Shown piece by piece: positions 2 through 20,081 of a stretch of DNA of 26,149 nucleotides; position 1 is the first letter of the stretch; each line of letters begins with the position of its first letter. The stretch comes from a virus. The notes beneath the pieces were generated by a model. The model saw only the letters and a list, made by a program, of their open reading frames with translations. It was not told the origin of the DNA and made no database searches. Location: the IMG/VR virus record IMGVR_UViG_3300028590_000080, positions 1 through 26,149 of that record. One strand, given 5' to 3'. The position numbers and the translations under genes are program-made.

Positions 2-1327
2 ATGAAGGACATGCCTGCATTCCTTCTGGCTGTTCTGGCGTCTCGGGACGTGGGCCTGTTCAAGCAGGTCTTCGATCGTGTCATCGACAACGGTCGCATG
101 CTGCGCAACTTCGTGCAGATCATGCGCTCGGGTGCAACCGGACGCTCGTCGCTCGGTACGGCTCCGAAGAAGAAGGTGCAGGAGTGGCTTGCAAAGCGCT
201 CCCCTGAGCAGCTTCTGCGTGACATGGTGGGTAACAACCCGTCGCTCGCAGACGTGATCAAGATGGTTCACCCAAAGCCTGAGACGAAGTCTCAGTCGGC
301 TGCGTTCGCATACCTATGCGATCGCAAGTACGATGGACGCTCTCTTCCGAAGTGCTTCAAGGAGTTCGAGGCGTTCAAGGCAGGTGAGAAGGGCAAGAGG
401 GTCATCCCGGACGTGCCGTTCCAGCTGCTCACGGCGTCCGACCTTTCCGACAAGGAGTGGACGGAGATCGCGAAGAACGCACGCTGGCAGATGACCAGGA
501 TGAACCTGAACACCTTCGCACGCCACAACGTGCTGAAGGACCAGGCGATGGTGGACATGCTCGCAGAGCGACTGCGTGACCCCGTACAGGTCCGTGCGTC
601 GAAGAACTTCCCGTACCAGTTGTTTACGAGCTACATGTTCGTGGATGCGGAAGTTCCTACCAAGCTGACGAATGCACTTCAGGATGCGATGGAGGTCGCG
701 GTCTCCAACGTTCCTAAGTTCGAGGGCAAGGTCCAGGTCCTTGTGGATACGTCTGGCTCCATGAGTGGCATCGTCACGGGTGACCGTGGCACTGCTTCGA
801 GCAAGATGCGCTACACGGACGTCGCTGCGCTGATTGCTTCGGTGGTCCTGCGTCAGAACGACGAGGCAGAAGTATACGGGTTCGATACGTCGGCTCGTAA
901 GCTGAAGCTCAACGGACGTGATTCGGTCGTCACCAACGCACAGAAGATCAACACCCCTGGTGGTGGTACGGACGTGTCGTGTGGTCTTCGACTCCTGAAC
1001 AGCGAGAAGGCGAAGGGCGACCTCGTCATCATCATCTCGGACAACGAGTCGTGGTTCGACGGCGGGAACAACCCGTTCGGGTACCGTGGAACCAGTGCAG
1101 CGCACGAGTGGCAGGCTTACAAGGCCCGCAACCCGAAGGCACGCATGGTCTGCATCAACATCGCACCTATGTCTACAGTACAGGTGCCTACTGACAAGAG
1201 CGTTCTCAACGTCGGTGGCTTCTCCGACCAGGTGTTCGAGGTCATTGCCTCGTTCATGAAGTCTGGTGGTGAGAAGGACTTCTGGGCCAAGGAGATTGAC
1301 AGCACGGTCAAGCTCATGGTAAGCTGA
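2..1327 (+). CDS. TROVE/Ro60-like RNA-binding protein with vWA domain (5' end outside window)
   Basis: The reading frame is open at the left edge, so the first Met here is probably internal: 441 residues are visible, while Ro60/Rsr proteins are usually about 530. The first ~230 residues are helical and basic, as in the TROVE HEAT-like ring that binds misfolded RNA and Y RNAs. The C-terminal ~200 residues form a von Willebrand A fold with a complete MIDAS: D249-x-S251-x-S253 in VDTSGSMSG, T323 in GGGTDV and D347 in IIISDNES. The known role of the family is RNA quality control and tethering of RNA effectors such as PNPase through Y RNA. Directly downstream lie a structured RNA, a tRNA-like cloverleaf and a tRNA, which suits an RNA-binding role. 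The family call is firm; its function in the phage is inference. Confidence 0.85.
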   Translation: MKDMPAFLLAVLASRDVGLFKQVFDRVIDNGRMLRNFVQIMRSGATGRSSLGTAPKKKVQEWLAKRSPEQLLRDMVGNNPSLADVIKMVHPKPETKSQSAAFAYLCDRKYDGRSLPKCFKEFEAFKAGEKGKRVIPDVPFQLLTASDLSDKEWTEIAKNARWQMTRMNLNTFARHNVLKDQAMVDMLAERLRDPVQVRASKNFPYQLFTSYMFVDAEVPTKLTNALQDAMEVAVSNVPKFEGKVQVLVDTSGSMSGIVTGDRGTASSKMRYTDVAALIASVVLRQNDEAEVYGFDTSARKLKLNGRDSVVTNAQKINTPGGGTDVSCGLRLLNSEKAKGDLVIIISDNESWFDGGNNPFGYRGTSAAHEWQAYKARNPKARMVCINIAPMSTVQVPTDKSVLNVGGFSDQVFEVIASFMKSGGEKDFWAKEIDSTVKLMVS

Positions 1328-2848: not shown

Positions 2849-3712
2849 ATGACGAAGGTTATCTACGCTGCACACAATCGTAAGGCAAGACACGGAGCAC
2901 CTGATCCAACGAAGATCAAGAAGCGCTCCCAGTACCGCGCTGAGCATGCGCAAGAGGTGCTTGGTGACACACATAGACCGCTTGGTGCTCGTGGTGTTGA
3001 CCCGAAGTCAGTTCCAACCGGCTACAGGCTAGGTGGTTATACGGGTAAGTATGAGATGTACCGTGAGGTCATGGCTCCTGGTGCTGTTGGTGCAAAGCTT
3101 CGTCACCAGAAGAAGTCTCGTACGTACGTTGTCATCACTGGAATGGGCTCTGTCTTTGTTGAGCAGGAAGGCGTGGAAGAGAAGAAGTACGCACGGCTGC
3201 TGCCTGGAGATGAGATCACCATTGCACCTGGTGAGACACATCAGCTGTTCACTACGGCAAAGGCTCATCTTGAGTTCCTGGTGTGCCAGGAAGCAAAGTA
3301 TGAGGACAAGCTAGAAACGCTTGAAGAAGCACGTGCACTAGAGGTACCTGCTGACCTCCTGAACAAGTCCAGGTCTGAGGAAGACCCTATGGAACTGACA
3401 GAAATGCCTGTGCGTAGGAAGCGCAACAACAGGACTGCTCAAATTCTGTGGGAAAAGAAGCGCGCAGCAGCTTACAGGGCTGGAGGAGAGCGTCTGGCAG
3501 AGTTCCTTGCAAACGAAGGAGCTTCACCTCCTACTGGAACTTCAGAAGAAAATGTGTCAGACTTGGTGCCGGCTCAACAACACGGTTCGCCAAAGGGCAA
3601 CGCGTCTGGTGGATTCCAGGGAATCAATGCGGATCCAAAGGCCATCATCAACGACATGTTGGAAGGCAGCGACTACACCGAGGCAGAACTTCGTGAGGCA
3701 GGCTTGATCTGA
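2849..3712 (+). CDS. Cupin-domain protein, possible virion/head-associated cargo
   Basis: I start at ATG 2849, with GAGG ten bases upstream. Residues ~55-150 form a cupin barrel: one histidine of motif 1 survives (H86 in LRHQKKSRTYVVITG) and motif 2 is clear (GDEITIAPGETH, G120 to H131). The other metal ligands of motif 1 are replaced, so a metal enzyme is doubtful and ligand binding is possible. Flanking regions are unrelated: a basic N-terminus (1-50), a basic segment near residue 190-220 and a flexible C-terminal tail. Closest general likeness is the mannose-6-phosphate isomerase-type cupins. Its TGA overlaps the next ATG (TGATG). The function in the phage is unknown. Confidence 0.65.
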   Translation: MTKVIYAAHNRKARHGAPDPTKIKKRSQYRAEHAQEVLGDTHRPLGARGVDPKSVPTGYRLGGYTGKYEMYREVMAPGAVGAKLRHQKKSRTYVVITGMGSVFVEQEGVEEKKYARLLPGDEITIAPGETHQLFTTAKAHLEFLVCQEAKYEDKLETLEEARALEVPADLLNKSRSEEDPMELTEMPVRRKRNNRTAQILWEKKRAAAYRAGGERLAEFLANEGASPPTGTSEENVSDLVPAQQHGSPKGNASGGFQGINADPKAIINDMLEGSDYTEAELREAGLI

Positions 3713-6420
3713 TGCGAGAGATTCTCTTCCTTCCACTAGACGTTACACTGGACGGCCTCAACAAGGGGCCGTCTGGCATTCGTCCGCCACAAGGTATGCG
3801 TGCGCCAGCAGGTTCTAAGGGACCTCCAGGGCAGCAGCCTAAGCTCGGCGCAGGTGGAATGGGTGGGAAGCCTCCAGCTCCTAAGATGGGTGGTGGTGGT
3901 GCGGGTCCAGGTGGCGGCTCTGGTAAGAAGTATGACTACGTCAAGGCCGACAAGCCACCTCCGGGAAACGCTGGTCGTACGCCTGGTGGCTACTGGAAGG
4001 TTCCAGTAGGCTCAGCTGCAGCTAAGCAGATGTCTCCGGACAATGAAGCGCCTGAGTCGACAGAGAAGAAGCGCGATCCTTTGTCCGGACAGTCTGTTTC
4101 GTCTGTTGATGAACGTGTTAGCAAGATACACGCTGAAACCTCTCAACCTGATCCGGCTGCTTCGGACAAGCCTGAGTCGTTTAGACAGAAGCAGTTTCGT
4201 AAGAAGAAGGAAGAAGAAGCTCAAGCAACGGCTGATACCGAGCAGAAGAACAAGATTGCCGAAGAAGGCATCGCTGCTCGTAACTCGATGAAGGATGAAG
4301 ACTTCAAGTATGAGCCGAAGCTTGAAGGTGAGCCTACGGGAGAGCCACGACAGGCACCTCCTGGTTCCTCAAAGAAGAAGGCAACTCAGCAGATCGATAT
4401 GTATTCGACTGACGAGAAGGACTTCGAGAGCGCACACCCAGCTACGCATTACGCACTTGCAGACAAGTTCCGCAAGGACGGGGACTCGAAGCTAGCTCAT
4501 TTTCATGAGCAGCAGGCAGCAAAGAAGACTGAAGGATTTGGGCATGCAGAACATGCGGAACTTTCAGATACCCTCCACAAGCACGGGCTGCACAAGGAAG
4601 CTGCGAAGCACGGCAGTAAGTCTTCGTCTATGCGTTCCGCTGAGATGAAGCAACGTGACCCAAACTGGCAGCGCGTAGCTGAGACTGACGGCACAATGCA
4701 CGTGTCAGACGACGAAGTTACTCAAGAGGTATCCGACAAGGATATCACTGAGTCAAAGCCAGAGCAGGACCCAGCAAAGAAGTGGGTGTCTGAGGTTGAT
4801 GAAGAGGATTCAGCTCAGCCTAAGCAGGATCCTATTGAAGGTCAAAAGGTCGAGAATCTAGATAAGGAACGTGCGTCTGAGAAGGCTAAGCGTGCTGTAT
4901 CTGATCACAAGGAAGCAGGCTCGAAGAAGGCAAAGGAGCTTTCGGATAAGCACGCTGCCGGTGAGAAGGAAATCGCTGAGCGTAGCAAGAAGAAGGCCTC
5001 CGACATGGCAAGCGCTCACGAAGAGAAGGGTCGCAAGCTGGCAGAAGGCCATTCTGCTCGTGAGAAGGAACTCTCAGACAAGCACAAGACTCGTGAGAAG
5101 GAGCTTACAGCAAAGCACGAGGCTGCAGGCAAGGAACTGTCAGAGAAGCACAGTTCTAAGCAGAAGGAGCTTACACAAGCACACAGGGATGCTCAAGACG
5201 AGCATGCCAAGGCACAGAAGCGTGTTAGCAGCCTCCGTTCTAGTGAAAAGCCTGACAAGGCGAAGATCAAGGAAGCACAGAAGGACGTTGCTGCTGCGAA
5301 GGAACTGATCACTGAGTCGAAGCGCAAGTTGGACGACCACAAGGTTAAGTCCAAGGAGCAAATGTCTGCTCACAAGGAAAAGACGTCCAAGGAGCTGGCT
5401 GCGCACAAGGAGAAGGCAGCAGCGGAGCTGTCTGCGCACAAGGAGAAGGCCTCGACTGAGATCGCAGACCATAAGTCCAAGGGCAAGGCAGCAGCAGCTG
5501 CACACAAGGAAGCGTCTGAGAAGGAGCTTTCTGACCACCGTACATCTGCTAAGAAGGAGATGGACGCTCATGCTGAGCAGCACAGTGCTCAGGCGAAGGA
5601 GCTTGGTCAGCAGCACGAACAGGCAAAGCAGGTCGACGCAGCAGCGGATAAGCAGGCCAAGGAAGACGCCAAGGCTCAGCAGAAGGCTCAGAAGGAGCAG
5701 GAGAAGGCCCAGGCTGCCCAGGCCAAGGACCAGGCGAAGGCAGAGTCTGAGAAGGCAGCGAACGTACGTCGTCCGCCTGCCAATGACCAGGAAAAGCTGC
5801 AGGCACAAGGTCATGCTGACAAGGCTCGTAAGATCCAGGAGAATCTCAAGACTCACCTGAACGACCCAAACCTTGACCCACAGCGCCGTGAGACACTTCA
5901 GCAAGCGCACGACATGCTACAGGAGCACATTGACGGCGGTCATGTTCCAACGCCTGAGATGACCCAGCAGATGAAGGACGTTGAGAAGGCAGCTGGTGAA
6001 CACGGAAAGAAGCCGTCTGAGAACGTACAGCAGAAGCCAGAAGCTGGTGGTGGTGCACAGAAGAAGACGCCTGGCATCTCCGCTGTGATGGCCAACGCGT
6101 ACAACCAGGGTGCAGCAGCTGGAAACGCTGTTGGTGCGGCTGCAGCTTCCCCTTACAGTGGAGCCCTCGGTCATGCTACTCTCCATTACGGAACCAAGGG
6201 CGTGGCGAGCGGTGGTCACTACCTGCTGTCGCCTCCGACGTCCGGTAAGTCTGAGAGTGAGAAGGCAACAGATAACGTTGCATCCAAGAGGAATGAGCCG
6301 GCGGGTGCAAAGCAGGACACAGCAGCGGGAAATGCTGATGATTCCACTGAGACAGTCTCAGCAAACAAGCACGTTGCTAAGGGACTTCGACTCTATGTGA
6401 AGGCAGGTTGGCAGCGATGA
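3712..6420 (+). CDS. Large collagen-like and coiled-coil virion-type protein
   Basis: ATG 3712 overlaps the preceding stop. The 902-residue protein has a Gly/Pro-rich, collagen-like N-terminus (residues ~18-75, with GPSGIRPPQG and GPPGQQPKLG), then a disordered charged part. A very long Lys/Glu/Ala coiled coil follows (roughly residues 383-683) built from degenerate units such as AHKEKA and KELSDKH. A Gly/Ala-rich segment and a short C-terminal end, HVAKGLRLYVK, finish it. That end resembles those of other proteins in this cluster. Sequence of this kind suits an elongated structural, internal-head or fibre protein. It lies upstream of the portal gene rather than with tail genes, favouring a head or internal protein. 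No enzyme domain is seen and I do not recognise the family. Confidence 0.7.
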   Translation: MREILFLPLDVTLDGLNKGPSGIRPPQGMRAPAGSKGPPGQQPKLGAGGMGGKPPAPKMGGGGAGPGGGSGKKYDYVKADKPPPGNAGRTPGGYWKVPVGSAAAKQMSPDNEAPESTEKKRDPLSGQSVSSVDERVSKIHAETSQPDPAASDKPESFRQKQFRKKKEEEAQATADTEQKNKIAEEGIAARNSMKDEDFKYEPKLEGEPTGEPRQAPPGSSKKKATQQIDMYSTDEKDFESAHPATHYALADKFRKDGDSKLAHFHEQQAAKKTEGFGHAEHAELSDTLHKHGLHKEAAKHGSKSSSMRSAEMKQRDPNWQRVAETDGTMHVSDDEVTQEVSDKDITESKPEQDPAKKWVSEVDEEDSAQPKQDPIEGQKVENLDKERASEKAKRAVSDHKEAGSKKAKELSDKHAAGEKEIAERSKKKASDMASAHEEKGRKLAEGHSAREKELSDKHKTREKELTAKHEAAGKELSEKHSSKQKELTQAHRDAQDEHAKAQKRVSSLRSSEKPDKAKIKEAQKDVAAAKELITESKRKLDDHKVKSKEQMSAHKEKTSKELAAHKEKAAAELSAHKEKASTEIADHKSKGKAAAAAHKEASEKELSDHRTSAKKEMDAHAEQHSAQAKELGQQHEQAKQVDAAADKQAKEDAKAQQKAQKEQEKAQAAQAKDQAKAESEKAANVRRPPANDQEKLQAQGHADKARKIQENLKTHLNDPNLDPQRRETLQQAHDMLQEHIDGGHVPTPEMTQQMKDVEKAAGEHGKKPSENVQQKPEAGGGAQKKTPGISAVMANAYNQGAAAGNAVGAAAASPYSGALGHATLHYGTKGVASGGHYLLSPPTSGKSESEKATDNVASKRNEPAGAKQDTAAGNADDSTETVSANKHVAKGLRLYVKAGWQR

Positions 6421-6920
6421 AGCACTACCTAGATATACGTAAGGCGCTACCCTCTGTGTCGTCTTCGGGAACGGACACGAAGGACGAAGACCGTGAAACC
6501 ATGGAGCACAAGGCTTCGTATACGAAGCGACCTGTTGGCGCTGCTTCTGGACACGAAGCTTCCCATGATGACCCAGACGAAGGTGGAAAGTACGGTGGCG
6601 GTGGCACTGTAGATGACGAGCTTGAGGGTGATCGTAAGGCAAACAACGAGAAGGCTGGCAAGAGAAACCTCATCCCAGTCAAGAAGTCCAACGATGCAGT
6701 AGACATGCTCAAGTCCCTTAGTACAGGACTAGCTGAGGTGTATGCTCAACTTACTCCGTCCGATCTAGAAGCCGAGTTCTTGGTAAACCAGCTAGGCTAT
6801 CCTAGTGACGAAGTTGCTAAGGGTCTGCATTGGATCGCAGGTAAGGATCGAGATTTGTTCGATCAGTGGGTGTGTGATAGAATGACCAAGTCCATTGATG
6901 CCCTTCTAAGGTGCGTATGA
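6417..6920 (+). CDS. Unknown small protein upstream of portal
   Basis: ATG 6417 overlaps the preceding stop (ATGA), and its own stop overlaps the portal start in the same way. The 167-residue product has a polar, probably disordered first half (residues ~15-80, Glu/Asp/Gly/Lys-rich). A compact helical second half contains DMLKSLSTGLAEVY and SDEVAKGLHWIAGKD, two of the K-S/K-G sites seen throughout the module. Its N-terminus MKHYLDIRKALP resembles the short Y-x-x-R peptide found at other protein ends here. Coupling to the portal suggests a head role such as scaffold accessory or portal partner. No family is recognised. Confidence 0.7.
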   Translation: MKHYLDIRKALPSVSSSGTDTKDEDRETMEHKASYTKRPVGAASGHEASHDDPDEGGKYGGGGTVDDELEGDRKANNEKAGKRNLIPVKKSNDAVDMLKSLSTGLAEVYAQLTPSDLEAEFLVNQLGYPSDEVAKGLHWIAGKDRDLFDQWVCDRMTKSIDALLRCV

Positions 6921-8743
6921 GCGAGTTCGACCAGTGGGTACATCAGGTCTCTTCGTGGACCGCTCCATCCAGTAACATCCCGCTACTGGCGAGGGAAGAT
7001 CTTGCCAAGTCCAGGATCAAGCTCGACGAACCCAAGCACGCATTCAACTCGTTGTTTGAGGATCCGCTGACAGTCCACTACGTGATGGGCTACAAGGATC
7101 GCAAGTACTCTCTCAGCTACGACATTCTCAAGAAGATCCCAGGACAGCTGGCAATCGTGGCTGCAATCCTCCAAACAAGGTGCAACCAGGTAGCTTCATT
7201 CTCTGTTCCATTCCGTAACTCCAAGTCTGTTGGATACGTCATCAAGCACAAGAACCCTGGTAAGATGACTACCAAGGGTGAACGTGAGATGATCCAAGAC
7301 ATGGAGAAGTTCGTCTACTCCTGTGGTTCGAAGGACGAGAATCCCCACAATCCGTACAAGCGTGATGACTTCGAGACCTTCCTCAAGAAGGTAGTTCGAG
7401 ACTCGCTCATGTACGATCAGATGACGTTCGAGATTGTGCCTGACCGTCGTGGACTCCCTTACGAGTTCATGGCAGTAGACGCGTCGACGATTCGCATGGC
7501 TGCTCCAATGCTCGATGGTGAGAAGGGCGATGGAGGCCGTGACCTACCTCTTTCATCACGCTTGACTAACGGCACAGTCAATGAGCAGTTGTATGGTAAT
7601 GGTGGTCCATACCGCAGCGCGCCAGATCCATTCAAGCTGATGAAGCTGTACAACCGCTCTCGTGACGATCGTCCTGCGTTCGTTCAGGTGTTCAACGGAC
7701 AAATCTGGAACGTATATACACGTGATGAACTGGCATTTGGTGTGCGTAACCCCCGCACAGATCTCTACATTCAAGGCTACGGTCAGTCTGAACTGGAGAT
7801 GCTGATCCAGACTATCACGTCGCATCTGTACGCTGAAGAGTACAACAGGCGCTTCTTCATGCAGGGAACTGCACCGAAGGGCATGCTTTCCTTCAAGGGT
7901 GATAGCATGACTCCGGATCAGCTTGAGGCGTTCCGTCGTCAGTGGAGGGCACAGATGGAAGGCGTTCAGAACGCATGGAAGACCCCTATCTTCCAGTCTG
8001 AACAGGGTATTGAGTGGATTCCGCTTGACCGTTCTAACTCCGAGATGGAGTACTCTCAGTGGATTGAGTATCTGATCAAGGTTACGTCTGCGGTGTTCCT
8101 CATCGACCCAGCAGAGTTGAACTTCGATCTGCATGGTGGTGTGAGCCAGACGCCGCTCTTCGAGAGCAGCCAGGAGTGGAAGCTCAAGGCATCACGTGAC
8201 CGAGGACTCAAGCCGCTGCTGCGCTTCATTGCTAAGCAGATCAACGAGAACATCATCGAGAAGATTGATGATCACTTCATCTTCGATTTCGTCGGCCTCG
8301 ATGAACTCACGGAGATGGAGAAGCACGAGCTGCGCAAGGAGCAGGTCTCGTCGTACATGACGCTGAACGAGATTCGTCGTGCAGAAGACCTGCCCGACCT
8401 TCCTGACGGCGACATCCCACTCAACCCGACGTACATCCAAGCAATGCAGGCTCGCCAGCAAGCAGAGCAGATGGACCAGGCAGCTGGTAGCCCTGGTGAA
8501 GAGCCTCCTGCTGAGGGTGGCGGTGAACAGGGGCAGGGTGGTGAAGACGAGACGCACGCGCCAAAGTACTCCGATACTTTCACTAAGGCACAGAAGCTGG
8601 GAGACGCACTGCGTTTGGCGAAGGCACTAGAGGATGGAAGGGTGAAGCCACCTACACGTGCGACTCCAACCGTACGTGTGGAATCTGGGGAGAAGTTCCT
8701 TGAGATTTCCCTAGACGATGTCATCGGAGACGTACGTAGATGA
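6917..8743 (+). CDS. Portal protein
   Basis: The 608-residue protein has the order of a phage portal. An N-terminal segment carries AILQTRCNQVASFSVPF, as in portals that dock on alternative DNA-entry subunits. A central block holds GYGQSELEMLIQTI and the stem/clip region around FMQGTAPKGMLSFKGDSM. Next come an F-R-x-Q-W wing segment and the IDPAELNF region. The tail is acidic, Gly/Pro/Gln-rich (residues ~515-560). The portal is the dodecameric vertex through which DNA is packaged and ejected. ATG 6917 (ATGA overlap with the upstream gene) is preferred over the GTG six bases earlier. The MuF-type protein that commonly follows a portal is here, but about 2.3 kb later, with small genes between. 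Confidence 0.88.
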   Translation: MSEFDQWVHQVSSWTAPSSNIPLLAREDLAKSRIKLDEPKHAFNSLFEDPLTVHYVMGYKDRKYSLSYDILKKIPGQLAIVAAILQTRCNQVASFSVPFRNSKSVGYVIKHKNPGKMTTKGEREMIQDMEKFVYSCGSKDENPHNPYKRDDFETFLKKVVRDSLMYDQMTFEIVPDRRGLPYEFMAVDASTIRMAAPMLDGEKGDGGRDLPLSSRLTNGTVNEQLYGNGGPYRSAPDPFKLMKLYNRSRDDRPAFVQVFNGQIWNVYTRDELAFGVRNPRTDLYIQGYGQSELEMLIQTITSHLYAEEYNRRFFMQGTAPKGMLSFKGDSMTPDQLEAFRRQWRAQMEGVQNAWKTPIFQSEQGIEWIPLDRSNSEMEYSQWIEYLIKVTSAVFLIDPAELNFDLHGGVSQTPLFESSQEWKLKASRDRGLKPLLRFIAKQINENIIEKIDDHFIFDFVGLDELTEMEKHELRKEQVSSYMTLNEIRRAEDLPDLPDGDIPLNPTYIQAMQARQQAEQMDQAAGSPGEEPPAEGGGEQGQGGEDETHAPKYSDTFTKAQKLGDALRLAKALEDGRVKPPTRATPTVRVESGEKFLEISLDDVIGDVRR

Positions 8744-9642
8744 GAAAGCTTCAGGGTCGCATCGATTTCCAAGGCCTGCCGATCTCAGTTGAGAATCGGA
8801 AGGGCTCGGTGCGCCAATGGTATGACGCGCACAATGATGAACATGGCGAAACCAAGATGAAGTACCCATACGGGTACGTTCGCGGTACGCTAGGTACAGA
8901 TGGTGATGCAGTAGACGTATACGTGGGCCCCAACGAGGAGTCCACCAAGGTGTTCATCATCACACAGATGAAGGCTCCAGAGTTCAAGTCTGTAGATGAG
9001 CAGAAGTGCATGCTCGGGTTCAACTCAGCTGCCGAAGCTAAGTCTGCGTATTTGCATCACTACAATGACGAGCGTTTCTTCGGTTCGATGAAGCAGATGA
9101 CAATCGAGCAGTTCAAGACGAAGCTCAGTACACACAAGGGTAAGTTGATCAAGGCATTGAACGAGCTATCTGCTTCTGCTACACTAGCAGATACTACCTT
9201 CATGAGGACTAGTATGACGAATCACGACGAAGCACTTCGCTTGCTGCGCCAGACCACCGACAACGTTCAGAAGTCGTGTCTTGGTCTTGAATCTGCTGAG
9301 GTGGAAGCCAAGCAGAAGAAGGAACATGAGGAGGAAGTCGAGAAGGGTCTACGTGCCCAGCAGGCACTGGGCATGGCTCGTGCTTATCGTCTGCATGACT
9401 TCTACGCTGGCACGGCTCAACCACAGCCCGCTATTGGTACTACTCGCCGTGCCAACGAGTGGGAGCCACCTGTTGTTCCTGTTAGGAAGGTGGAGACACC
9501 TCCTGATGAAGTCAGCAAGGGTGCGCTTGAGCAGTTTGTGACCTGCGGTTGTGGTATTATCCACAAGAGCACAAACGCCTGCCCTCGTTGCAGAGATGCA
9601 CATTCCATCAAGGAGACGCAGACTCCTAAGTGGGAGGGCTGA
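8740..9642 (+). CDS. InPase-domain (pyrophosphatase-like) protein with C-terminal zinc ribbon
   Basis: ATG 8740 overlaps the portal stop. Residues ~1-130 match the InPase domain known from phage polyvalent proteins: GTDGDAVDVYVGP (D54, D56, D59), then VFIITQ, DEQKCMLGF (D86-E87-x-K89), A-x-x-A-Y and a final F-K-x-x-L. In that family the acidic residues are thought to bind metal, as in inorganic pyrophosphatases. A charged coiled coil follows (~165-210), then a C-terminal zinc-ribbon-like motif C269-x-C271...C281-P-x-C284. VEKGL and VSKGA sites are candidate processing points. Lying between portal and MuF genes, it is probably a head-associated or injected protein. Domain assignment is good; activity is unproven. 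Confidence 0.75.
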   Translation: MRKLQGRIDFQGLPISVENRKGSVRQWYDAHNDEHGETKMKYPYGYVRGTLGTDGDAVDVYVGPNEESTKVFIITQMKAPEFKSVDEQKCMLGFNSAAEAKSAYLHHYNDERFFGSMKQMTIEQFKTKLSTHKGKLIKALNELSASATLADTTFMRTSMTNHDEALRLLRQTTDNVQKSCLGLESAEVEAKQKKEHEEEVEKGLRAQQALGMARAYRLHDFYAGTAQPQPAIGTTRRANEWEPPVVPVRKVETPPDEVSKGALEQFVTCGCGIIHKSTNACPRCRDAHSIKETQTPKWEG

Positions 9643-9645
9643 TTC

Positions 9646-10050
9646 ATGGAACTCTACATCCGTCACGACCTTCACAAGGGTCCAACTGCACCTGCAACGA
9701 CTGCTGCCAACAAGACGAAGCCAGTCAAGGACGCAGCTGCATCTAAGACAGTCGGTGAACAGCGTGGCGGCAAGTACGTAGCGCGCGTGCAGACGGGCTA
9801 CGATAAGGATGGTTCTCCAAAGTACAAGTACTTCGAGACTCAAGAAGAGTACAAGAAGTGGAAGGAGAACCACGGTAAGGGTAGCAAGCGTAAGAAGCCG
9901 GACAAGAACCCTCACAATCTGGCCCAGAAGGTCGAACGTGAGCACCGTGAGAGTAAGGAGAAGCAGGACAAGACAAAGCAGACTGCTGGCTCCGATCCAC
10001 TGAAGGACAACAAGACATCGGTTCGTAAGAGCCTATATGTGAGGATGTGA
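9646..10050 (+). CDS. Basic small protein with YVRx-type terminal peptides at both ends
   Basis: ATG 9646 begins three bases after the previous stop. The 134-residue product has a folded-looking core, GGKYVARVQTGYDKDGSPKY followed by an aromatic Y-F-x-T-x-E-E-Y helix start (residues ~43-65). A long Lys/Glu/Arg helical tail follows. The protein starts MELYIRHDLHKG and ends TSVRKSLYVRM, so an L-Y-[IV]-R peptide is present at both termini. Strongly basic composition suits DNA-associated or internal head cargo. I do not recognise the family. Its TGA overlaps the next ATG (TGATG). Confidence 0.7.
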   Translation: MELYIRHDLHKGPTAPATTAANKTKPVKDAAASKTVGEQRGGKYVARVQTGYDKDGSPKYKYFETQEEYKKWKENHGKGSKRKKPDKNPHNLAQKVEREHRESKEKQDKTKQTAGSDPLKDNKTSVRKSLYVRM

Positions 10051-11091: not shown

Positions 11092-13734
11092 ATGGCAAAG
11101 CTACCGCTCAACGAGCTTAGGCGTATTGTACGCATCCATATGAACTGGCTGACGATGGTTACCTTGGGAAAGGACGCCATCACGTCTGAAGAGTTCGAGG
11201 AGTTGCGTCAGTACGGCAAGCTGCCACTAGAATCGCTTGACCTCGTTGAGTCGTCCTACCTGTTGGGGCGACTCAAGAGTTTCTTGAAGTCACGTGAGTA
11301 CAAGGACATCACGTTCGAGAAGCTCCGCGACGAGAAGAAGGCAGTGGTGTACACTGAGAGCGAGCGCCTCGCTATCGAGCACGCACGTCTTACGGCCGCT
11401 GCCAGCCTGAAGCGCATCCAAGACGAGATCACGGACGGACTATACAGTCAGTTCGCTGCGATCAGCGGACAGATCCTCACCGAGGAAACTATTCGTGGAG
11501 TAGTTCGGGATGAGGTAGTGTCCGCTCTAGAGTCTCGCCGCTCAGCGCAAGAGCTTGCGTCAACGCTCGCAAGTAAGCTCCAGACAAACAAGCGTGATTG
11601 GCTCAAGGTAGCAAAGACTGAACTTCATCGTGCCAAGATGATGGGTGTGGCTCAGGCCATTTCCAACCGCCTTGGTCCGTACAGTGGTGGTGACGGGCCT
11701 GATTCAAACGTGGTTGTCATTCCAGCGGCTCACTGCTGTGAGGATTGCAGCTTTCACTTCTTGGATGACGATGGAAACCCACGAGTCTTCAAGCTACGTG
11801 ACCTGCTTGCCGCAGGAAGTAACGCGGATCCAGGAACCTCACACAAGAAGCGTGAGGGACTTCACATCCATTGGAAGCCTACTCTCCCTCCTCTGCACCC
11901 TAACTGTGGTTGCGTGGTACAGTATCTACCTCCTGGTACAGGTTTTGCTGCTGGTAAGATGGTTCTCAAGTCTTTGACTGAGTACCAAGAGTTCATCACA
12001 AAGGCTGACAGCAGCGGCGTTGGCAATCCTACAGCCAAGCCACCAGGACCTCCGCAGCCTTCGAAGCCTGCAAGCCCTGGCTCTGCACCAGGCGTTCACG
12101 CTCCTGGCGCTGGAGGAGGTACAGGTGGTGGTACGATCAAGGCCAAGGGTCCACGTGGACCGAAGGGACCAGCGGTCAACTATGTACCCAAGGATTCTGT
12201 AGACAAGCGTCCTACAGGTACGATTGGCGAGACAGACAGTTCGTACAAGGTCATTCCCGGTATGAAGGCTGGTAAGGCACCTACTGAGGAACAGAAGAAG
12301 ATCATGGCTCGTGAGAAGATGCACGAGTCGATCAACTGGTCGAAGACCACCAAGGACGACCGTGTGAAGTTGAATCACATGGCAACTGGTAAGGTCGCGT
12401 ACCAGCAGCGTCTTGGTGAGGAAACTGACGACGTTCAATCCGGTGTGACTGAGTCGTACCGTGTTGTGATTGAAGGTAACGGTCGTGCGCTAATGAAGCC
12501 TGCACAAGAACACAATCAGATGGTTCTTGATGGTCAGGCTATCACAGAAGGAGCAGCTACTGTTCCACACGGTCGTGGTGCTCATCACGAGGCTGGTGCA
12601 TATCACGCTCACGTGATGTTCGGTCTACACGACTACGTTCCACCTACTGCGGTTCGTGAAGGAGCAGATGGACAGCACAGCTCTTTCCAAAGCTGGATGG
12701 AGGACTACGCGCCTGTAACGGAATCTGCTGCATACAAGGCGCACCAGACGGCAACTGGTAATGCCAGCAGGAACATGGTTGCAAACATTCTTGCAGCAGC
12801 ACCTCCAGACAAGCGCGATGGACTTCGAGAGAAGATCGACAACCACTGCGTCATGGGTATTATCTTGAACCACAATGATGCCCACGGTGGTAACGCTCTG
12901 CTCTCTAACGACGGCAGTGATCTGCGTTTCATTGACAATACCACCACGGGTGGTACCGGTCTACATGGTCATAAGAACACGTTGTTCATGCATGCGCACA
13001 ACAACGGTATGAAGGTGAAGATCAGCCCGAAGCTGAACGAGCGCTTCAACAAGACCACTTTCCATGACATGCAGAGAAGCATGTCGGGTCACTATTCTGA
13101 TTGGCAGGTCGGTCAGGCGTTCCTGCGTATGCGCTACGCTCAGACACTGAACGAGCGTGACGGACATCTCAACTTCGAGTACTTCCGTCCAACTATCAGT
13201 AGTGTGGACGGTAAGGTGACCATGGGACGTATGGGTATGTTCAAGGACGAGGAGTTTGAACACCGTTCAAAGTTGGGGACCTTGCCTAACAACATGTTCG
13301 AGTCCTGGGCAAAGAGCTACATCGACGACGTGAAGTCGAACCCAGACCATCCAGACCATGAGTCGATCAAGACGATCGACGACATCGGCGTGTTCATGGG
13401 CATCGACAATATGGCTCCAAACCCAGGTGAATATCGCCGCCAGGGCAAGCACCGCGAGTACGAGAAGTCCATCACGAAGCGCAAGTTGCCCATGCATCCA
13501 GACGACCCGGTCCCGGATGTGCAGGTCAAGGGCGACATCGAGCCGGACAATATTGCTGCTCAGTACGCGAGGACCACAGAAGCGCCTGACAGGCCCGGTG
13601 ATAAGACTGTTAGGCCGAATAAGGCCGGCGACGGGCCAAGAATCCAACGCGCTGCGTCTACCAGGGACGAAAGCGATAAGACGGTCAAGCCTGGAAAGCT
13701 CAAGAAGGGTCTGAAGTTGTACGTTTCTCGTTGA
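11092..13734 (+). CDS. MuF-type head morphogenesis protein fused to a kinase-like domain
   Basis: The 880-residue protein has two parts. Residues ~90-285 match the MuF (SPP1 gp7/Mu gpF) family: a helical segment to AKTELHRAKMMGVAQA, then AAHCCEDC (C215, C216, C219) and the signature LHPNCGC (H269, C272, C274). A Pro/Gly-rich linker (~310-365) follows. Residues ~455-690 look like a PI3/4-kinase-like or HipA-like fold: NGRALMKPA with candidate ATP-lysine K469, E500 in GAHHEAGAYHA, GLHDYVPPT, a catalytic-loop-like HNDAHGGNALL (D596, N601) and metal-binding-like FIDN (D615). The C-terminus ends KKGLKLYVSR. MuF proteins act in head assembly and are injected; MuF fusions to toxin domains are known. 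The kinase call rests on motifs and needs structure comparison. Confidence 0.75.
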   Translation: MAKLPLNELRRIVRIHMNWLTMVTLGKDAITSEEFEELRQYGKLPLESLDLVESSYLLGRLKSFLKSREYKDITFEKLRDEKKAVVYTESERLAIEHARLTAAASLKRIQDEITDGLYSQFAAISGQILTEETIRGVVRDEVVSALESRRSAQELASTLASKLQTNKRDWLKVAKTELHRAKMMGVAQAISNRLGPYSGGDGPDSNVVVIPAAHCCEDCSFHFLDDDGNPRVFKLRDLLAAGSNADPGTSHKKREGLHIHWKPTLPPLHPNCGCVVQYLPPGTGFAAGKMVLKSLTEYQEFITKADSSGVGNPTAKPPGPPQPSKPASPGSAPGVHAPGAGGGTGGGTIKAKGPRGPKGPAVNYVPKDSVDKRPTGTIGETDSSYKVIPGMKAGKAPTEEQKKIMAREKMHESINWSKTTKDDRVKLNHMATGKVAYQQRLGEETDDVQSGVTESYRVVIEGNGRALMKPAQEHNQMVLDGQAITEGAATVPHGRGAHHEAGAYHAHVMFGLHDYVPPTAVREGADGQHSSFQSWMEDYAPVTESAAYKAHQTATGNASRNMVANILAAAPPDKRDGLREKIDNHCVMGIILNHNDAHGGNALLSNDGSDLRFIDNTTTGGTGLHGHKNTLFMHAHNNGMKVKISPKLNERFNKTTFHDMQRSMSGHYSDWQVGQAFLRMRYAQTLNERDGHLNFEYFRPTISSVDGKVTMGRMGMFKDEEFEHRSKLGTLPNNMFESWAKSYIDDVKSNPDHPDHESIKTIDDIGVFMGIDNMAPNPGEYRRQGKHREYEKSITKRKLPMHPDDPVPDVQVKGDIEPDNIAAQYARTTEAPDRPGDKTVRPNKAGDGPRIQRAASTRDESDKTVKPGKLKKGLKLYVSR

Positions 13735-16841: not shown

Positions 16842-16882
16842 AAAGGGAGTAGTTGGCGGATCACCGTCGACGCTCCCTTTTT
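16842..16882 (+). terminator. Terminator-like hairpin between promoter and protease gene (attenuator or sRNA end)
   Basis: AAAGGGAG (16842-16849) pairs with CTCCCTTT (16873-16880). The inner bases GTTGGCGG/CCGTCGAC also pair around an ATCA loop with one small bulge, and five T residues follow (16878-16882). The structure begins about 20 bases after the predicted transcription start. It would either end a ~60-nt RNA or attenuate the capsid operon. The protease RBS lies only about nine bases beyond it, so read-through is needed for expression from this promoter. Confidence 0.75.
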
Positions 16883-16901
16883 GGCTTTCAGGGTTCAACA
16901 C

Positions 16902-17633
16902 ATGAACGAAACCTACGGCTGGATTGACGAAGATACCTGGCGCTGCTTCGTACCTGCTGCTCAAGTAGTAAAGAGCGGCGGTAAGAGTGGTGCAGACAAG
17001 ACCGGCAAGCGCTGGATTCAGGGTATTGCGTCAACGTCATCTCGCGACCTACAGGGCGAGGTGGTGGACCAGGCCGGCATGGACCTGTCATACTTCTTGA
17101 AGCATGGCTGGTTCAACAATGACCACAAGGACGGTCCAGACAACAAGATTGGACTTCCAACAGAGGCTAAGATCACTAAGGATGGTCTCTGGGTCAAGGG
17201 CTACCTGCTAAAGGACAAGAAGGTAGCTGACGAGTTCTGGGAGTTGATGAACTCGCTAGAACGCTCTGGTACTGACCGTAAGGTTGGTTTTTCTATTCAG
17301 GGCAAGGTGAAGCGTCGTGAGGGTAAGACGATCAAGGAATGCTGGATTCAGGAGATCGCAATCACTACGGCACCTGTGAATACAACTACGTGGGCAGAGA
17401 TTGTGAAGTCTCTGTCTTCGCAGAGCGACAAGAATGAGGAGAAGGCTCTCTCTGCATCCGGCAACGGTGCAGTACTCATTCCTGAATCGCTGGACGGCAA
17501 GAAGAAGGAAGACATCGAGAAGTCCTACACCTTCGATCAGACGGTGGAGTTGCTTGTCAAGAGCCATGGTCTTTCACGCGAGGTCGCTGAAGGTGCGGCC
17601 CACACCATCTTCCACATGTACGGTAAGGAGTGA
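16902..17633 (+). CDS. Prohead maturation protease (S78-like serine protease)
   Basis: ATG 16902 is chosen because AGGG lies eight bases upstream; the in-frame TTG at 16881 sits in the terminator T tract. The 243-residue protein has the prohead serine protease order: W7-I-D, then WIQGIASTSSRDLQGEVVD, a histidine in WFNNDHKDGP (H75) with IGLPTEA, and GFSIQGKVK with the candidate nucleophile S131, then IQEIAITTAPVN. A flexible tail with IVKSL, IEKSY and LVKSH may be self-cleaved. Such proteases cut scaffold and capsid proteins during head maturation. It sits directly before the scaffold-like and major capsid genes, the usual order. Confidence 0.85.
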   Translation: MNETYGWIDEDTWRCFVPAAQVVKSGGKSGADKTGKRWIQGIASTSSRDLQGEVVDQAGMDLSYFLKHGWFNNDHKDGPDNKIGLPTEAKITKDGLWVKGYLLKDKKVADEFWELMNSLERSGTDRKVGFSIQGKVKRREGKTIKECWIQEIAITTAPVNTTTWAEIVKSLSSQSDKNEEKALSASGNGAVLIPESLDGKKKEDIEKSYTFDQTVELLVKSHGLSREVAEGAAHTIFHMYGKE

Positions 17634-17636
17634 ACA

Positions 17637-18593
17637 ATGACTGAGAAGGTTACTCAGGACGACATCCAGAAGGGTCTGGCAGTACTTCAGGATCTTGCGA
17701 AGGGTCACGCTTCCAAGGGCACGCCATCGACGGAATCGACGTCCATGGTAGGCCAGAGCGGACCAACCCAGATCCACCACACGCCATCCAACTCGGATCC
17801 AGGCTCGTGGGCAGGTTCGTCGGCATCGGCAGTTCCACAGAACGGCACGACTGACGCAATCGATGCAAATGGCACCGACTACACCCAGGCCAAGATGATG
17901 AAGTCCATCATGGACAAGATCGCTAAGGGCCAGGCTCTGAACGAGTTCGAGGCGTACTTCATGAAGTCCGTCATGGACAAGGCGCTTCCGCCTGCGTTCG
18001 ACAAGAAGAAGGACGAGAAGGAAGACGTCGAGAAGGGCGCACCTCCGTTCGGCAAGAAGGACGATGAAGACAAGGACGTTGCGAAGTCACTGGCTGACTA
18101 CGCAGGCGAGAACGAGACGGTCGAGAAGGGCCTGGAAGTCTCGGAGTTCCTTGCAAACTGGGCAGACGTCATGCACAAGTCGCAGTCTGCGATGGAGAAC
18201 CGCATCGTTTCCCGCATCCTGGGCGCACTGAGCGGCCAGGCAGAAGCATCTGCGGAGTTCCAGAAGAGCCTTGCAGGCGCAGTACACTCGCTGGGTCAGG
18301 GAGTAGCACTCCAGGCACAGCGTCTGGCACAGGTGGAGTCTACACCAGCACGTGGTCCGAAGTCGGCACCTCGCGTTGATGTGATCGAGAAGTCGCAGGG
18401 CGGTGCAGCACCAGCAGGTGCCGACGCGCTCGAAGGCTTCGAGAAGTCGTTGGTCGGTGACGCATTGGTTGAACTGGTCACTAAGGGCCAGGTAGCACCG
18501 AAGGAAGTGGTCGCATGGGAGTCGAGCAACGGCAACCCACGTGTACTTACTCCGGCAACCAAGGCAAAGGTAGCAGCGCACATCGGTCGCTGA
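17637..18593 (+). CDS. Probable scaffolding protein with many K-S/K-G sites
   Basis: ATG 17637 follows AAGGAG at good spacing. The 318-residue protein is hydrophilic, with a low-complexity Ser/Thr/Gly/Asn stretch (~30-75), a Lys/Asp/Glu-rich region (~120-145) and helical segments elsewhere. Position between protease and major capsid gene is the standard scaffold slot. It carries an unusual number of K-S/K-G sites in similar context, for example IQKGL, VEKGA, VAKSL, VEKGL, FQKSL, IEKSQ and FEKSL, which I take as candidate protease cut sites. The C-terminus is basic and helical, as in capsid-binding ends of scaffolds. Codon use is biased and shared with the capsid gene, fitting high expression. 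Confidence 0.72.
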   Translation: MTEKVTQDDIQKGLAVLQDLAKGHASKGTPSTESTSMVGQSGPTQIHHTPSNSDPGSWAGSSASAVPQNGTTDAIDANGTDYTQAKMMKSIMDKIAKGQALNEFEAYFMKSVMDKALPPAFDKKKDEKEDVEKGAPPFGKKDDEDKDVAKSLADYAGENETVEKGLEVSEFLANWADVMHKSQSAMENRIVSRILGALSGQAEASAEFQKSLAGAVHSLGQGVALQAQRLAQVESTPARGPKSAPRVDVIEKSQGGAAPAGADALEGFEKSLVGDALVELVTKGQVAPKEVVAWESSNGNPRVLTPATKAKVAAHIGR

Positions 18594-18629: not shown

Positions 18630-20081
18630 ATGTCTGTAGGTCTAAGCGCATTCCAGTCGACCGGTGGTTACAGCGGTCCAGGTATCGCAACGCGTAGTGA
18701 GATCGAAGAGCTTAGCAAGGCTCTTGAAGCTGGCTACTCGATCGGTGCGGGCCTGACTGGTGGATCAGCCATGCGCGTCCAGTCCCTTGAGCAGTCGCTC
18801 AAGGTGCTGACGTACAACAGCAACCACGTGAAGCTGTGGAAGAAGATCCACAAGAGCCCAGCGTTCAGCACGGTTGAAGAGTACAACCAGCTGACTGATT
18901 ACGGCGGAAACGCCTTCCCGTTCGTCCAGGAAGGTGAACTTCCTCAGGCGAGCGACTCCAGCTACGTACGTCGTACGCAGCTTGTGAAGTTCCTGGGTAC
19001 GGTACGTGAGGTCACGCACCAGGCAACGCTTGTGCACCCAGCACACGGCGACCTGATCGCACAGGAAAACCACAACGGTATCCTGTACCTCATGAACCAG
19101 ATCGAGAACTTCCTGTTCTCCGGTGACTCGTCGCTCGCATTCGACGGCGAAGCAGAGCAGTGGGACGGTCTTGACGCTCTGATCGACTCGACGTCGGTCA
19201 TCGACCTTGAGGGTGCAAGCCTTCAGGAGACCGACCTCGAAGAGGCATCGACGACGATCCTCGACAACTACGGTTACCCAACGGACCTGTTCCTTGGTCT
19301 CCGCGCGCTGTCGGATCTCCAGAAGACGCTGTACCCACGTCAGCGTATCCAGATGCCCCTGCCGCAGAACGGCAAGGTTGGTCTGACGATCGCATCGGCG
19401 CTCACGAGCGGTGGTGAGATCGAGTTCAACCCGGACATCTTCATCAAGAAGACGCCAAACCCACGCGCAGCAGCAACGTCTGCAAACGCACCAGCAACCC
19501 CAGCGTCGATCGCAGGCGCGCACTCGGCAACGGGTACGGGTGACTGGAACAAGGGCCACGACTCGGGCACCACGAACGTTGCATACGTAGTCACGGCATG
19601 CAACCGTTTCGGTGAGTCGGCACCTACGGCTGTCCTTGGCGCTGTCGTGGCAATCACGCAGGCTCAGAAGGACGCAAGCGGCGCAATCCAGCTGACGGTC
19701 ACGAACCCAGCTGTCATCGGCGCATTCCCGGTAGAGTACTTCCGTATCTACCGCTCGGCTGGTTCGTCTTCGACGACGGTTCCTACTGCAATGTCGAGCT
19801 ACTCGCTCGTCATGCAGGTTCCGGCAGCTTCGCAGGCAGCAGGTGGTACCACGGTTGTCAACGACGTGAACCTCACGCTCCCAGGCACCACGGTCGCCTA
19901 CATGGGACAGATGGACGCTTCGGTTCTTACCTTCCGTCAGCTTATGCCGATGATGAAGATGGACCTTGCAGTCCTGGGCCCAGCATACCGCTGGATGATC
20001 CTGCTCTACGGTACGCCAGTACTCTTCGCTCCGAAGAAGTGGCTCCGTATCATCAACATCGGCGAGCTTCAGTCTCGCTGA
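18630..20081 (+). CDS. Major capsid protein with an Ig/FN3-like insertion
   Basis: A strong RBS (AAAAGGAGAAGAAC) precedes ATG 18630. The 483-residue product has HK97-type coat features: a helical N-terminal arm (1-60), an E-loop-like region with YVRRTQLVKFLGTVREVTHQ, and a spine/P-domain around FLFSGDSSLAFDGEAEQWDG and LDNYGYPTDLFLGLRALSDL. A C-terminal block contains TPVLFAPKKWLRIINIGEL. Between ~276 and 420 lies an inserted beta-sandwich: YVVTACNRFGESAPT, VEYFRIYRSAG and a final TVVNDVNLTLPGT, typical of FN3/Ig-like modules. The insert probably projects from the capsid surface. Codon bias suggests very high expression. Scaffold upstream and a hairpin downstream support the assignment. Confidence 0.85.
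   Translation: MSVGLSAFQSTGGYSGPGIATRSEIEELSKALEAGYSIGAGLTGGSAMRVQSLEQSLKVLTYNSNHVKLWKKIHKSPAFSTVEEYNQLTDYGGNAFPFVQEGELPQASDSSYVRRTQLVKFLGTVREVTHQATLVHPAHGDLIAQENHNGILYLMNQIENFLFSGDSSLAFDGEAEQWDGLDALIDSTSVIDLEGASLQETDLEEASTTILDNYGYPTDLFLGLRALSDLQKTLYPRQRIQMPLPQNGKVGLTIASALTSGGEIEFNPDIFIKKTPNPRAAATSANAPATPASIAGAHSATGTGDWNKGHDSGTTNVAYVVTACNRFGESAPTAVLGAVVAITQAQKDASGAIQLTVTNPAVIGAFPVEYFRIYRSAGSSSTTVPTAMSSYSLVMQVPAASQAAGGTTVVNDVNLTLPGTTVAYMGQMDASVLTFRQLMPMMKMDLAVLGPAYRWMILLYGTPVLFAPKKWLRIINIGELQSR

What the first reader, a model, noticed from the sequence alone, without database searches (positions are those of the whole stretch)
11092..13734. MuF head protein fused to a PI3/4-kinase- or HipA-like kinase domain
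The N-terminal half has the MuF signature LHPNCGC. After a Pro/Gly linker, the C-terminal half has a K469 candidate, E500, a catalytic-loop-like HNDAHGGN and FIDN metal site in the correct order and spacing for a PI3/4K-type or HipA-like kinase. MuF fusions to toxins are known and MuF-type proteins are injected with DNA. A kinase delivered by the phage head could modify host targets at the start of infection.
Basis: partly seen in the sequence, partly recalled or inferred. Interest (0 to 1): 0.85.

Follow-up and report, generated by a model that had tools for sequence, protein, structure and literature searches.

The report
Phage head protein carrying a kinase
An uncultured phage makes a head protein of the MuF kind with an intact-looking kinase domain attached; the same pairing turns up in other phages, so some phages may carry a ready-made kinase in the virus particle and deliver it with their DNA, which still has to be shown by experiment.

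Summary
Window 11092-13734 encodes 880 aa inside a phage head-gene block. Residues 1-290 are a divergent MuF-type minor head protein; after a Pro/Gly linker, about 421-764 fold like a PI3/4-kinase. The whole window protein matches no family alone. Of 13 aligned members, at E up to 1, 10 match Pfam PI3_PI4_kinase (best 4.6e-9) and 10 TIGR03843/SCO1664 (best 2.4e-9). The AlphaFold model (pLDDT 85.7, pTM 0.88) matches PI4KII best (Z 18.7), then Fam20C, CtkA, HipT/HipA. MuF-kinase fusions also occur on two short contigs with no BLAST-detectable window gene, and haloarchaeal virus HSTV-2 has a related kinase in a head-block gene. Most likely: a kinase packaged in the head, injected with the DNA, phosphorylating host proteins. 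Domains are well supported; packaging, injection, activity and substrate are inferred. MuF-effector fusions are known; I found none with a PI4K-like kinase in the searches named. New variant of a known kind.

The parts
11092..13734 (+). MuF-kinase fusion gene, 880 aa
11092..11961 (+). N-terminal MuF-type minor head protein domain (residues 1-290)
   Evidence: family profiles of aligned members; model and viral fold matches
11893..11913 (+). MuF signature LHPNCGC (residues 268-274)
   Evidence: H269, P270, C272, C274 nearly invariant
11962..12273 (+). region with the Pro/Gly-rich linker (residues 291-394)
12274..13491 (+). PI3/4K-like kinase domain with C-terminal helical extension as modelled (residues 395-800; the best PI4KII match spans model residues 27-370, that is 421-764)
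12496..12498 (+). K469, candidate ATP-binding lysine
   Evidence: invariant in 19 of 19 rows
12589..12591 (+). E500, candidate helix-C glutamate
   Evidence: invariant in 19 of 19 rows
12871..12894 (+). catalytic loop HNDAHGGN (residues 594-601), D596 and N601 invariant
12928..12939 (+). metal site FIDN (residues 613-616), D615 invariant
13705..13725 (+). C-terminal KGLKLYV (residues 872-878), candidate head-packaging or protease-processing tag
   Evidence: function inferred
6911..8743 (+). portal protein (context)
8740..9642 (+). InPase-domain protein next to portal (context)
16881..17633 (+). head maturation protease (context)
17637..18593 (+). head scaffold (context)
18630..20081 (+). major capsid protein, SPO1/Herelleviridae-like (context)

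Best explanation
The gene makes a minor head protein of the MuF type whose C-terminal half is a PI3/4K-superfamily kinase. Shown: the gene, the two domains, the conservation of the catalytic residues, the place inside the head-gene block, and the recurrence of the pairing in other phages. Inferred: the MuF half places the protein in the head near the portal, the protein is ejected into the host with the DNA, and the kinase then phosphorylates host proteins (rather than lipids) at the start of infection, either to redirect host machinery or to blunt defence.
For: Catalytic K, E, D, N, D invariant in 19 of 19 rows, although the relatives are only 21-37% identical to the window over this stretch. 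Of 13 aligned members (window included), at E up to 1, 10 hit PI3_PI4_kinase (best 4.6e-9) and 10 hit TIGR03843 (best 2.4e-9); L044 passes Pfam's own cut-off (33.2 against 27.1 bits). Confident model with PI4KII Z 18.7, 252 aligned, 3.4 A, then Fam20C, CtkA, HipT, HipA. MuF profiles for the N-half. Gene order from InPase to capsid conserved in L002 and L012. The same two-domain pairing on contigs L085 (4,159 bases) and L086 (9,444 bases), where no window protein matches by BLAST at 1e-3: Phage_Mu_F at 1.6e-8 and 2.8e-8 (27.2 and 27.3 bits, under the 29.6 cut-off) and PI3_PI4_kinase over its cut-off at 1.3e-10 and 2.5e-15 (E-values for one record), in one open frame each. Where the MuF core has decayed (L012, L079, L092), the kinase is kept. 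A C-terminal K[GS]LxLYV-like tail is shared with other head-block proteins. Published precedent for MuF-fused packaged effectors: PMC5512222 and PMC9503650, passages seen.
Against: No virion proteomics, no activity data, no known host. Six loci of the same lineage carry a MuF without the kinase (L031, L034, L035, L039, L043, L058), and the whole records of four of them (L031, L035, L039, L043) hold no match to the kinase profile (these records may be fragments), so it looks dispensable. The window's own copy has unusual loop residues (A597, N616, T617) and hits no family as a whole. Foldseek's own best matches had query TM-scores of only 0.44-0.45, and no PDB sequence passed 0.001 in the profile search (best 0.002). 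The tail expression was written after seeing some tails. L007 has an in-frame TGA between the MuF and kinase parts. In cultured phages the L085 and L086 proteins match only in the MuF half among the rows listed.
Confidence: 0.62

Rival explanations
1. An active kinase that works on the phage's own head or neck proteins during assembly, or regulates maturation or ejection, and is not an injected effector.
For: Encoded between portal and protease among head genes; in HSTV-2 a related kinase is part of a gene three places after the capsid gene.
Against: Absent from relatives with the same neighbouring head genes, which fits an optional effector better than an assembly factor; MuF fusions in the passages seen are read as injected effectors.
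Confidence: 0.18
2. The kinase fold transfers to something other than protein: a lipid, a nucleotide or another small molecule, or AMP rather than phosphate.
For: Best fold match is a lipid kinase, PI4KII (Z 18.7). That some kinase-fold enzymes are AMPylases or glutamylases is recalled, not from a call.
Against: Fold does not give the substrate; Fam20C and HipA/HipT, also in the list, are protein kinases (recalled); phosphatidylinositol is uncommon in bacteria (recalled).
Confidence: 0.15
3. A catalytically dead kinase fold used as a structural or binding module of the head.
For: A597, N616 and T617 in the window depart from the DRH and DHG read in many relatives; L079 lacks the loop histidine.
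Against: K, E, D, N and D are kept in 19 of 19 rows while only 13 of 406 columns are invariant.
Confidence: 0.05

Closest known systems
MuF-effector fusions and polyvalent proteins (PMC5512222, PMC3482391, PMC9503650; passages seen)
   Same: MuF domain joined to an enzyme, head-gene context, predicted packaging and injection
   Different: The MuF-fused effectors in the passages seen include ARTs, PBECR, 2H, RelA/SpoT, PRTase, Nudix, papain-like peptidase and zeta-toxin-like kinase; no PI3/4K-like kinase in the passages seen (not all places were shown, and PMC3482391 is held only in part)
Kinase-PolyVal (PF18762), the protein-kinase domain of polyvalent proteins
   Same: Kinase-type enzyme in phage proteins of conflict
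   Different: No match at E up to 1 in 0 of 19 records (no control genome passed the cut-off there either) and not among the 8 Pfam families; described as lacking the C-terminal subdomain, whereas here the PI4KII match covers about 250 residues
Type II phosphatidylinositol 4-kinases (PI4KII alpha and beta)
   Same: Best fold match, Z 18.1-18.7 over 246-254 residues
   Different: 15-16% identity; here joined to MuF; no lipid activity shown
SCO1664 family (TIGR03843)
   Same: 10 of 13 members match at E up to 1, best 2.4e-9
   Different: Far below the family cut-off in the member shown (33.1 against 172.4 bits)
HipA/HipT toxin kinases
   Same: Fold matches: rows named HipT Z 10.8-11.7, rows named HipA or hipBA 9.9-11.1; weak HipA_C matches in 5 of 13 (best 0.004)
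   Different: Weaker than PI4KII and Fam20C; no HipB-type antitoxin match among the 10 window proteins scanned against Pfam (most of the smaller genes were not scanned there)
HSTV-2 gp16 (YP_007379095.1); the matching gene is annotated phosphatidylinositol kinase in four relatives
   Same: PI4K-like kinase in a head-block gene; hhalign 93%, E 3.4e-7; Pfam PI3_PI4_kinase 1.5e-5, 25.5 bits, just under the cut-off
   Different: No Phage_Mu_F match at E up to 0.01; archaeal virus

Membership tests
MuF minor head proteins (PF04233) | profile match of the family the window belongs to | tested here: met
   at E up to 1, 8 of 20 members, best 6.4e-5; window itself only 0.12, 13.6 bits, under the 29.6 cut-off; phrog_115 minor head protein 12 of 20, best 1.4e-7, window not by that model but phrog_2468 head morphogenesis at 0.011
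MuF minor head proteins (PF04233) | gene in the head block near the portal | tested here: met
MuF minor head proteins (PF04233) | presence in the virion | not testable with these tools
   needs virion mass spectrometry
MuF minor head proteins (PF04233) | match to a solved MuF fold | tested here: inconclusive
   no PDB chain with Z 5 or more; viral library: 4 matches at E up to 0.001, one named head morphogenesis, two named Hint/intein, one uncharacterised; weaker rows include many minor capsid and head morphogenesis names
PI3/4-kinase superfamily (PF00454) | profile match of the family the window belongs to | tested here: met
   at E up to 1, 10 of 13 members, best 4.6e-9; L044 33.2 bits over the 27.1 cut-off; whole window protein none
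PI3/4-kinase superfamily (PF00454) | catalytic K, E, D, N, D | tested here: met
   19 of 19 rows; the roles assigned to the residues are recalled
PI3/4-kinase superfamily (PF00454) | fold | tested here: met
   predicted model, PI4KII Z 18.7, 252 aligned, 3.4 A
PI3/4-kinase superfamily (PF00454) | phosphotransfer activity | not testable with these tools
   needs enzyme assay
SCO1664 family (TIGR03843) | score over the curated cut-off | tested here: not met
   33.1 bits against 172.4 for the one member whose score is shown; no match at E up to 1 in the window's own record
Kinase-PolyVal (PF18762) | profile match | tested here: not met
   0 of 19 records at E up to 1; control genomes: 2 of 14 ring, none over the cut-off
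HipA toxins (PF07804) | profile match | tested here: inconclusive
   5 of 13 members at E up to 1, best 0.004; fold Z about 10-12

The most novel reading that the evidence does not exclude
PI4K-like kinases are a recurrent, interchangeable cargo of tailed-virus heads: fused to MuF in apparently three phage lineages (the SPO1-like group of the window, L085, L086), in a separate gene between portal and MuF in the distant relative L097, and part of a head-block gene close to the capsid gene in haloarchaeal virus HSTV-2. That would be a class of virion-delivered kinases acting on the cell at the moment of entry.
Probability: 0.45. Interest if true: 0.8.

Novelty: new variant of a known kind. Interest (0 to 1): 0.62.

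Why it matters
Phages are known to carry a few enzymes in the head that act before any phage gene is expressed. A kinase of the PI3/4K kind in that position would add a new activity to that set, gives named residues to test, and would link bacterial and archaeal tailed viruses through the same kind of cargo.

Tried and rejected
Direct searches with the window protein failed to find the kinase: no Pfam, PHROGs or NCBIfam family, two weak PDB sequence matches outside the kinase motifs that I take as chance, no tblastn match of residues 402-735 in phages up to E 1, no viral-contig relatives by back-translated patterns. Going through the capsid gene opened the family. Two genome-contig scans, with A3 and with the L086 protein, found no relative; such scans reach close relatives only. 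A tblastn of the L006 kinase part in phages found nothing at E up to 0.1.

The degenerate HNDAHGGN pattern found three contigs. The proteins read in two of them (L061, L062) share the loop but did not match the kinase profile, and were set aside; the third (L063) was not read.

HHTV-1 gp13 was considered as a further case; the profile comparison was weak (10%, E 0.003) and Pfam gave nothing at 0.01, so it is not counted. A control comparison with the window capsid protein gave 0.1%. HSTV-3 gp16 matches only the N-terminal part of HSTV-2 gp16 (query 11-130) and Pfam shows no kinase there at E up to 0.1.

Membership in HipA toxins, Kinase-PolyVal and SCO1664 was tested and is not claimed. The MuF model had pTM only 0.52 and no PDB match; the MuF assignment rests on profiles. 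In the identity comparison, 14 of 19 rows were used (L007, L012, L066, L078, L079 dropped as incomplete, decayed, interrupted or near-duplicate).

Paper searches. One search was poor because the phrase was altered by the parser, and because 'muf' matched unrelated words. So 'none found' is limited to these searches and to open-licence papers. PMC4284463 and PMC8651126 (passages seen) do not mention this kinase in HSTV-2; PMC4255298 was seen in a listing only.

Full report
What is there. Window 11092-13734 (+) is one open frame of 880 aa. It lies in a block of phage head genes: portal 6911-8743, an InPase-domain protein 8740-9642, three small genes, this gene, three further genes, head maturation protease 16881-17633, scaffold 17637-18593 and capsid 18630-20081. 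The capsid protein is 44-45% identical to the best-ranked ones in phages, Spounavirinae such as Exiguobacterium phage vB_EalM-132 and Bacillus phage Goe26 among them. The record is a 26,149-base virus contig.

Why direct searches failed. The whole window protein matches no Pfam, PHROGs or NCBIfam family, and residues 402-735 find nothing in 50,697 phage records up to E 1. A scan with the capsid protein gave 59 viral-contig loci. Seventeen of the 63 loci then held, the window's own L001 included, encode the C-terminal half by BLAST (E 1e-24 or better), giving 13 distinct proteins. A profile scan added six more, for 19 aligned rows, window included; L066 is nearly the same as L059. Later scans added L084 and L092, not in that alignment.

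The kinase half. In the 19 rows, 13 of 406 columns of residues 395-800 are invariant: K469, E500, G511, W535, D596, N601, I614, D615, Q675, R679, Y682, G691, P754 (the same 13). The four residues named in the finding are the only invariant K, E or D of 80 such residues. H598 is kept in 18 of 19. Many relatives read DRHxxN and IDHG; the window reads DAHGGN and IDNT. Of 13 aligned members, at E up to 1, 10 match PI3_PI4_kinase (best 4.6e-9), 5 HipA_C (best 0.004), 4 Fam20C (best 0.0058), and 10 match TIGR03843 (best 2.4e-9); 8 match phrog_3162, of unknown function (best 1.5e-7). A profile search of PDB sequences gave nothing below 0.001; first came SMG1 (0.002), Tel1 and ATM (0.004-0.006), then HipA_C/HipT entries (0.023-0.025).

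The fold. AlphaFold on the 19-row alignment gave pLDDT 85.7 and pTM 0.88. Foldseek had 173 PDB matches at E up to 0.001, the best Fam20C (4.9e-6) and PI4KII alpha (5.8e-6), with query TM-scores of 0.44 and 0.45. VIA-align, a second look at Foldseek's top 1000, ranked PI4KII first (Z 18.7, 252 aligned, 3.4 A, 16% identity), then Fam20 proteins (13.9-15.6), CtkA (13.4-13.9), HipT (10.8-11.7) and HipA (9.9-11.1). The viral library gave 11 matches at E up to 0.001, among them phage proteins annotated PI3K/PI4K and a 490-aa HSTV-2 protein, the length of gp16.

The MuF half. Of 20 members, at E up to 1, 8 match Phage_Mu_F (best 6.4e-5; window 0.12) and 12 match phrog_115 minor head protein (best 1.4e-7). 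The model has pLDDT 85.8 but pTM 0.52; viral matches include head morphogenesis and minor capsid proteins and no PDB match reached Z 5. In Bacillus phage Goe26 the homologue is a separate 286-aa gene directly before a portal gene.

Distribution. Six loci carry a MuF of 301-397 aa without the kinase; the records of four of these and of L026 have no match to the kinase profile (0 of 5), while all 19 kinase records do. I did not count how many of the 59 loci reach this gene. In L026 the place between the same neighbours holds a trypsin-like protease gene. In L012, L079 and L092 the MuF core is lost or barely recognisable while the kinase is kept. The kinase part is less conserved than the MuF part (mean pairwise identity 32% against 51%, 91 pairs of 14 rows, 5 rows dropped). 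In L085 and L086, where no window protein matches by BLAST at 1e-3, one open frame holds both Phage_Mu_F (1.6e-8, 2.8e-8; both under the cut-off) and PI3_PI4_kinase over the cut-off (1.3e-10, 2.5e-15; E-values for one record). These contigs are short, so their lineage is not settled; L085 has a portal-family match in its other long frame. Their matches in phage records, in the rows listed, are to Arthrobacter and other phage MuF-type proteins (L086; 20 of 29 records listed) and Vibrio and Aeromonas phage proteins (L085; 13 of 13 listed), and stop before the kinase. In L097, a distant relative (portal 33% identical), the kinase is in a 1047-aa gene after the portal and the MuF is a separate gene. 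HSTV-2 gp16, three places after the capsid gene, matches the kinase profile (hhalign 93%, 3.4e-7) and PI3_PI4_kinase just under the cut-off; in HSTV-3 only the N-terminal part is shared.

Candidate tag. The protein ends LKKGLKLYVSR. Endings of this kind were found in 13 of 2316 unique ORF tails against a mean of 1.15 (maximum 4) in 20 shuffles and 1 of 1044 mid-protein windows. Five of the 13 are MuF-kinase proteins, seven are other plus-strand frames, the window's 9646-10050 protein among them, and one is a probable chance frame on the minus strand (L032). The 902-aa window protein 3712-6420 also ends this way. The expression was written after seeing some tails. The scaffold is rich in a hydrophobic-x-K-[SGA] motif (11 against 1.7 expected, 0 of 300 shuffles as high). 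A role in packaging or protease processing is inference.

How it most likely works. The MuF half holds the protein in the head, the DNA carries it into the cell, and the kinase modifies host proteins early. Domains, conservation and context are shown; packaging, injection, activity and substrate are inferred. The best fold match is a lipid kinase, so the substrate is open.

What is known. MuF fused to effectors, packaged and injected, is described (PMC5512222, PMC3482391, PMC9503650; passages seen), as is a MuF-VIP2 fusion in Microbacterium phages (PMC7302621, passages seen). PMC3482391 also names a lantibiotic-synthetase-type kinase toxin, of another delivery system. The kinase of polyvalent proteins is a different model, PF18762, with a match in 0 of 19 records. 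None of the passages seen mentions a PI3/4K-like kinase on MuF; not all places in these papers were shown. Paper searches are listed in Tried and rejected.

What changed on checking. Counts now say that the window is one of the rows, thresholds of E up to 1 are named, the place of HSTV-2 gp16 is three genes after the capsid gene, and the weak points of the fold and profile searches are told.

Noticed in passing
L078:5496-8897: MuF-kinase gene with an intein-like Hint domain inserted at the MuF HPxC signature (Pfam Hint 3.7e-6 and Hom_end_hint 9.2e-6, both under their cut-offs); the two best viral fold matches of the MuF model are also named Hint or intein proteins.
   Followed up: partly
L007:871-3765: An in-frame TGA separates the MuF part from the kinase part; cause unknown.
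   Followed up: partly
L026:4508-5242: Trypsin-like protease gene (Trypsin_2 3.2e-22) in the place of the MuF-kinase between conserved neighbours.
   Followed up: partly
L039:2943-7595: 1550-aa protein with topoisomerase IB-like and InPase domains next to a MuF without kinase.
   Followed up: no
window 2-1327: Ro60-type vWA domain protein at the window start (4.2e-15), with a TROVE match under the cut-off; phrog_850 RNA-binding protein.
   Followed up: no
window 8740-9642: InPase-domain protein directly after the portal, a domain that PMC5512222 predicts to be packaged in other phages.
   Followed up: no
window 17637-18593: Scaffold protein rich in hydrophobic-x-K-[SGA] motifs, a possible protease cleavage motif.
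   Followed up: partly
L060:4972-7704: 910-aa head-block protein with a Pfam match to a metalloprotease-type domain (ATLF, 1.3e-6, 28.7 against 27.4 bits).
   Followed up: no
L061:320-1627, L062:3770-5074: Phage-contig proteins with an HNDAHGGN loop that do not match the window kinase profile.
   Followed up: partly
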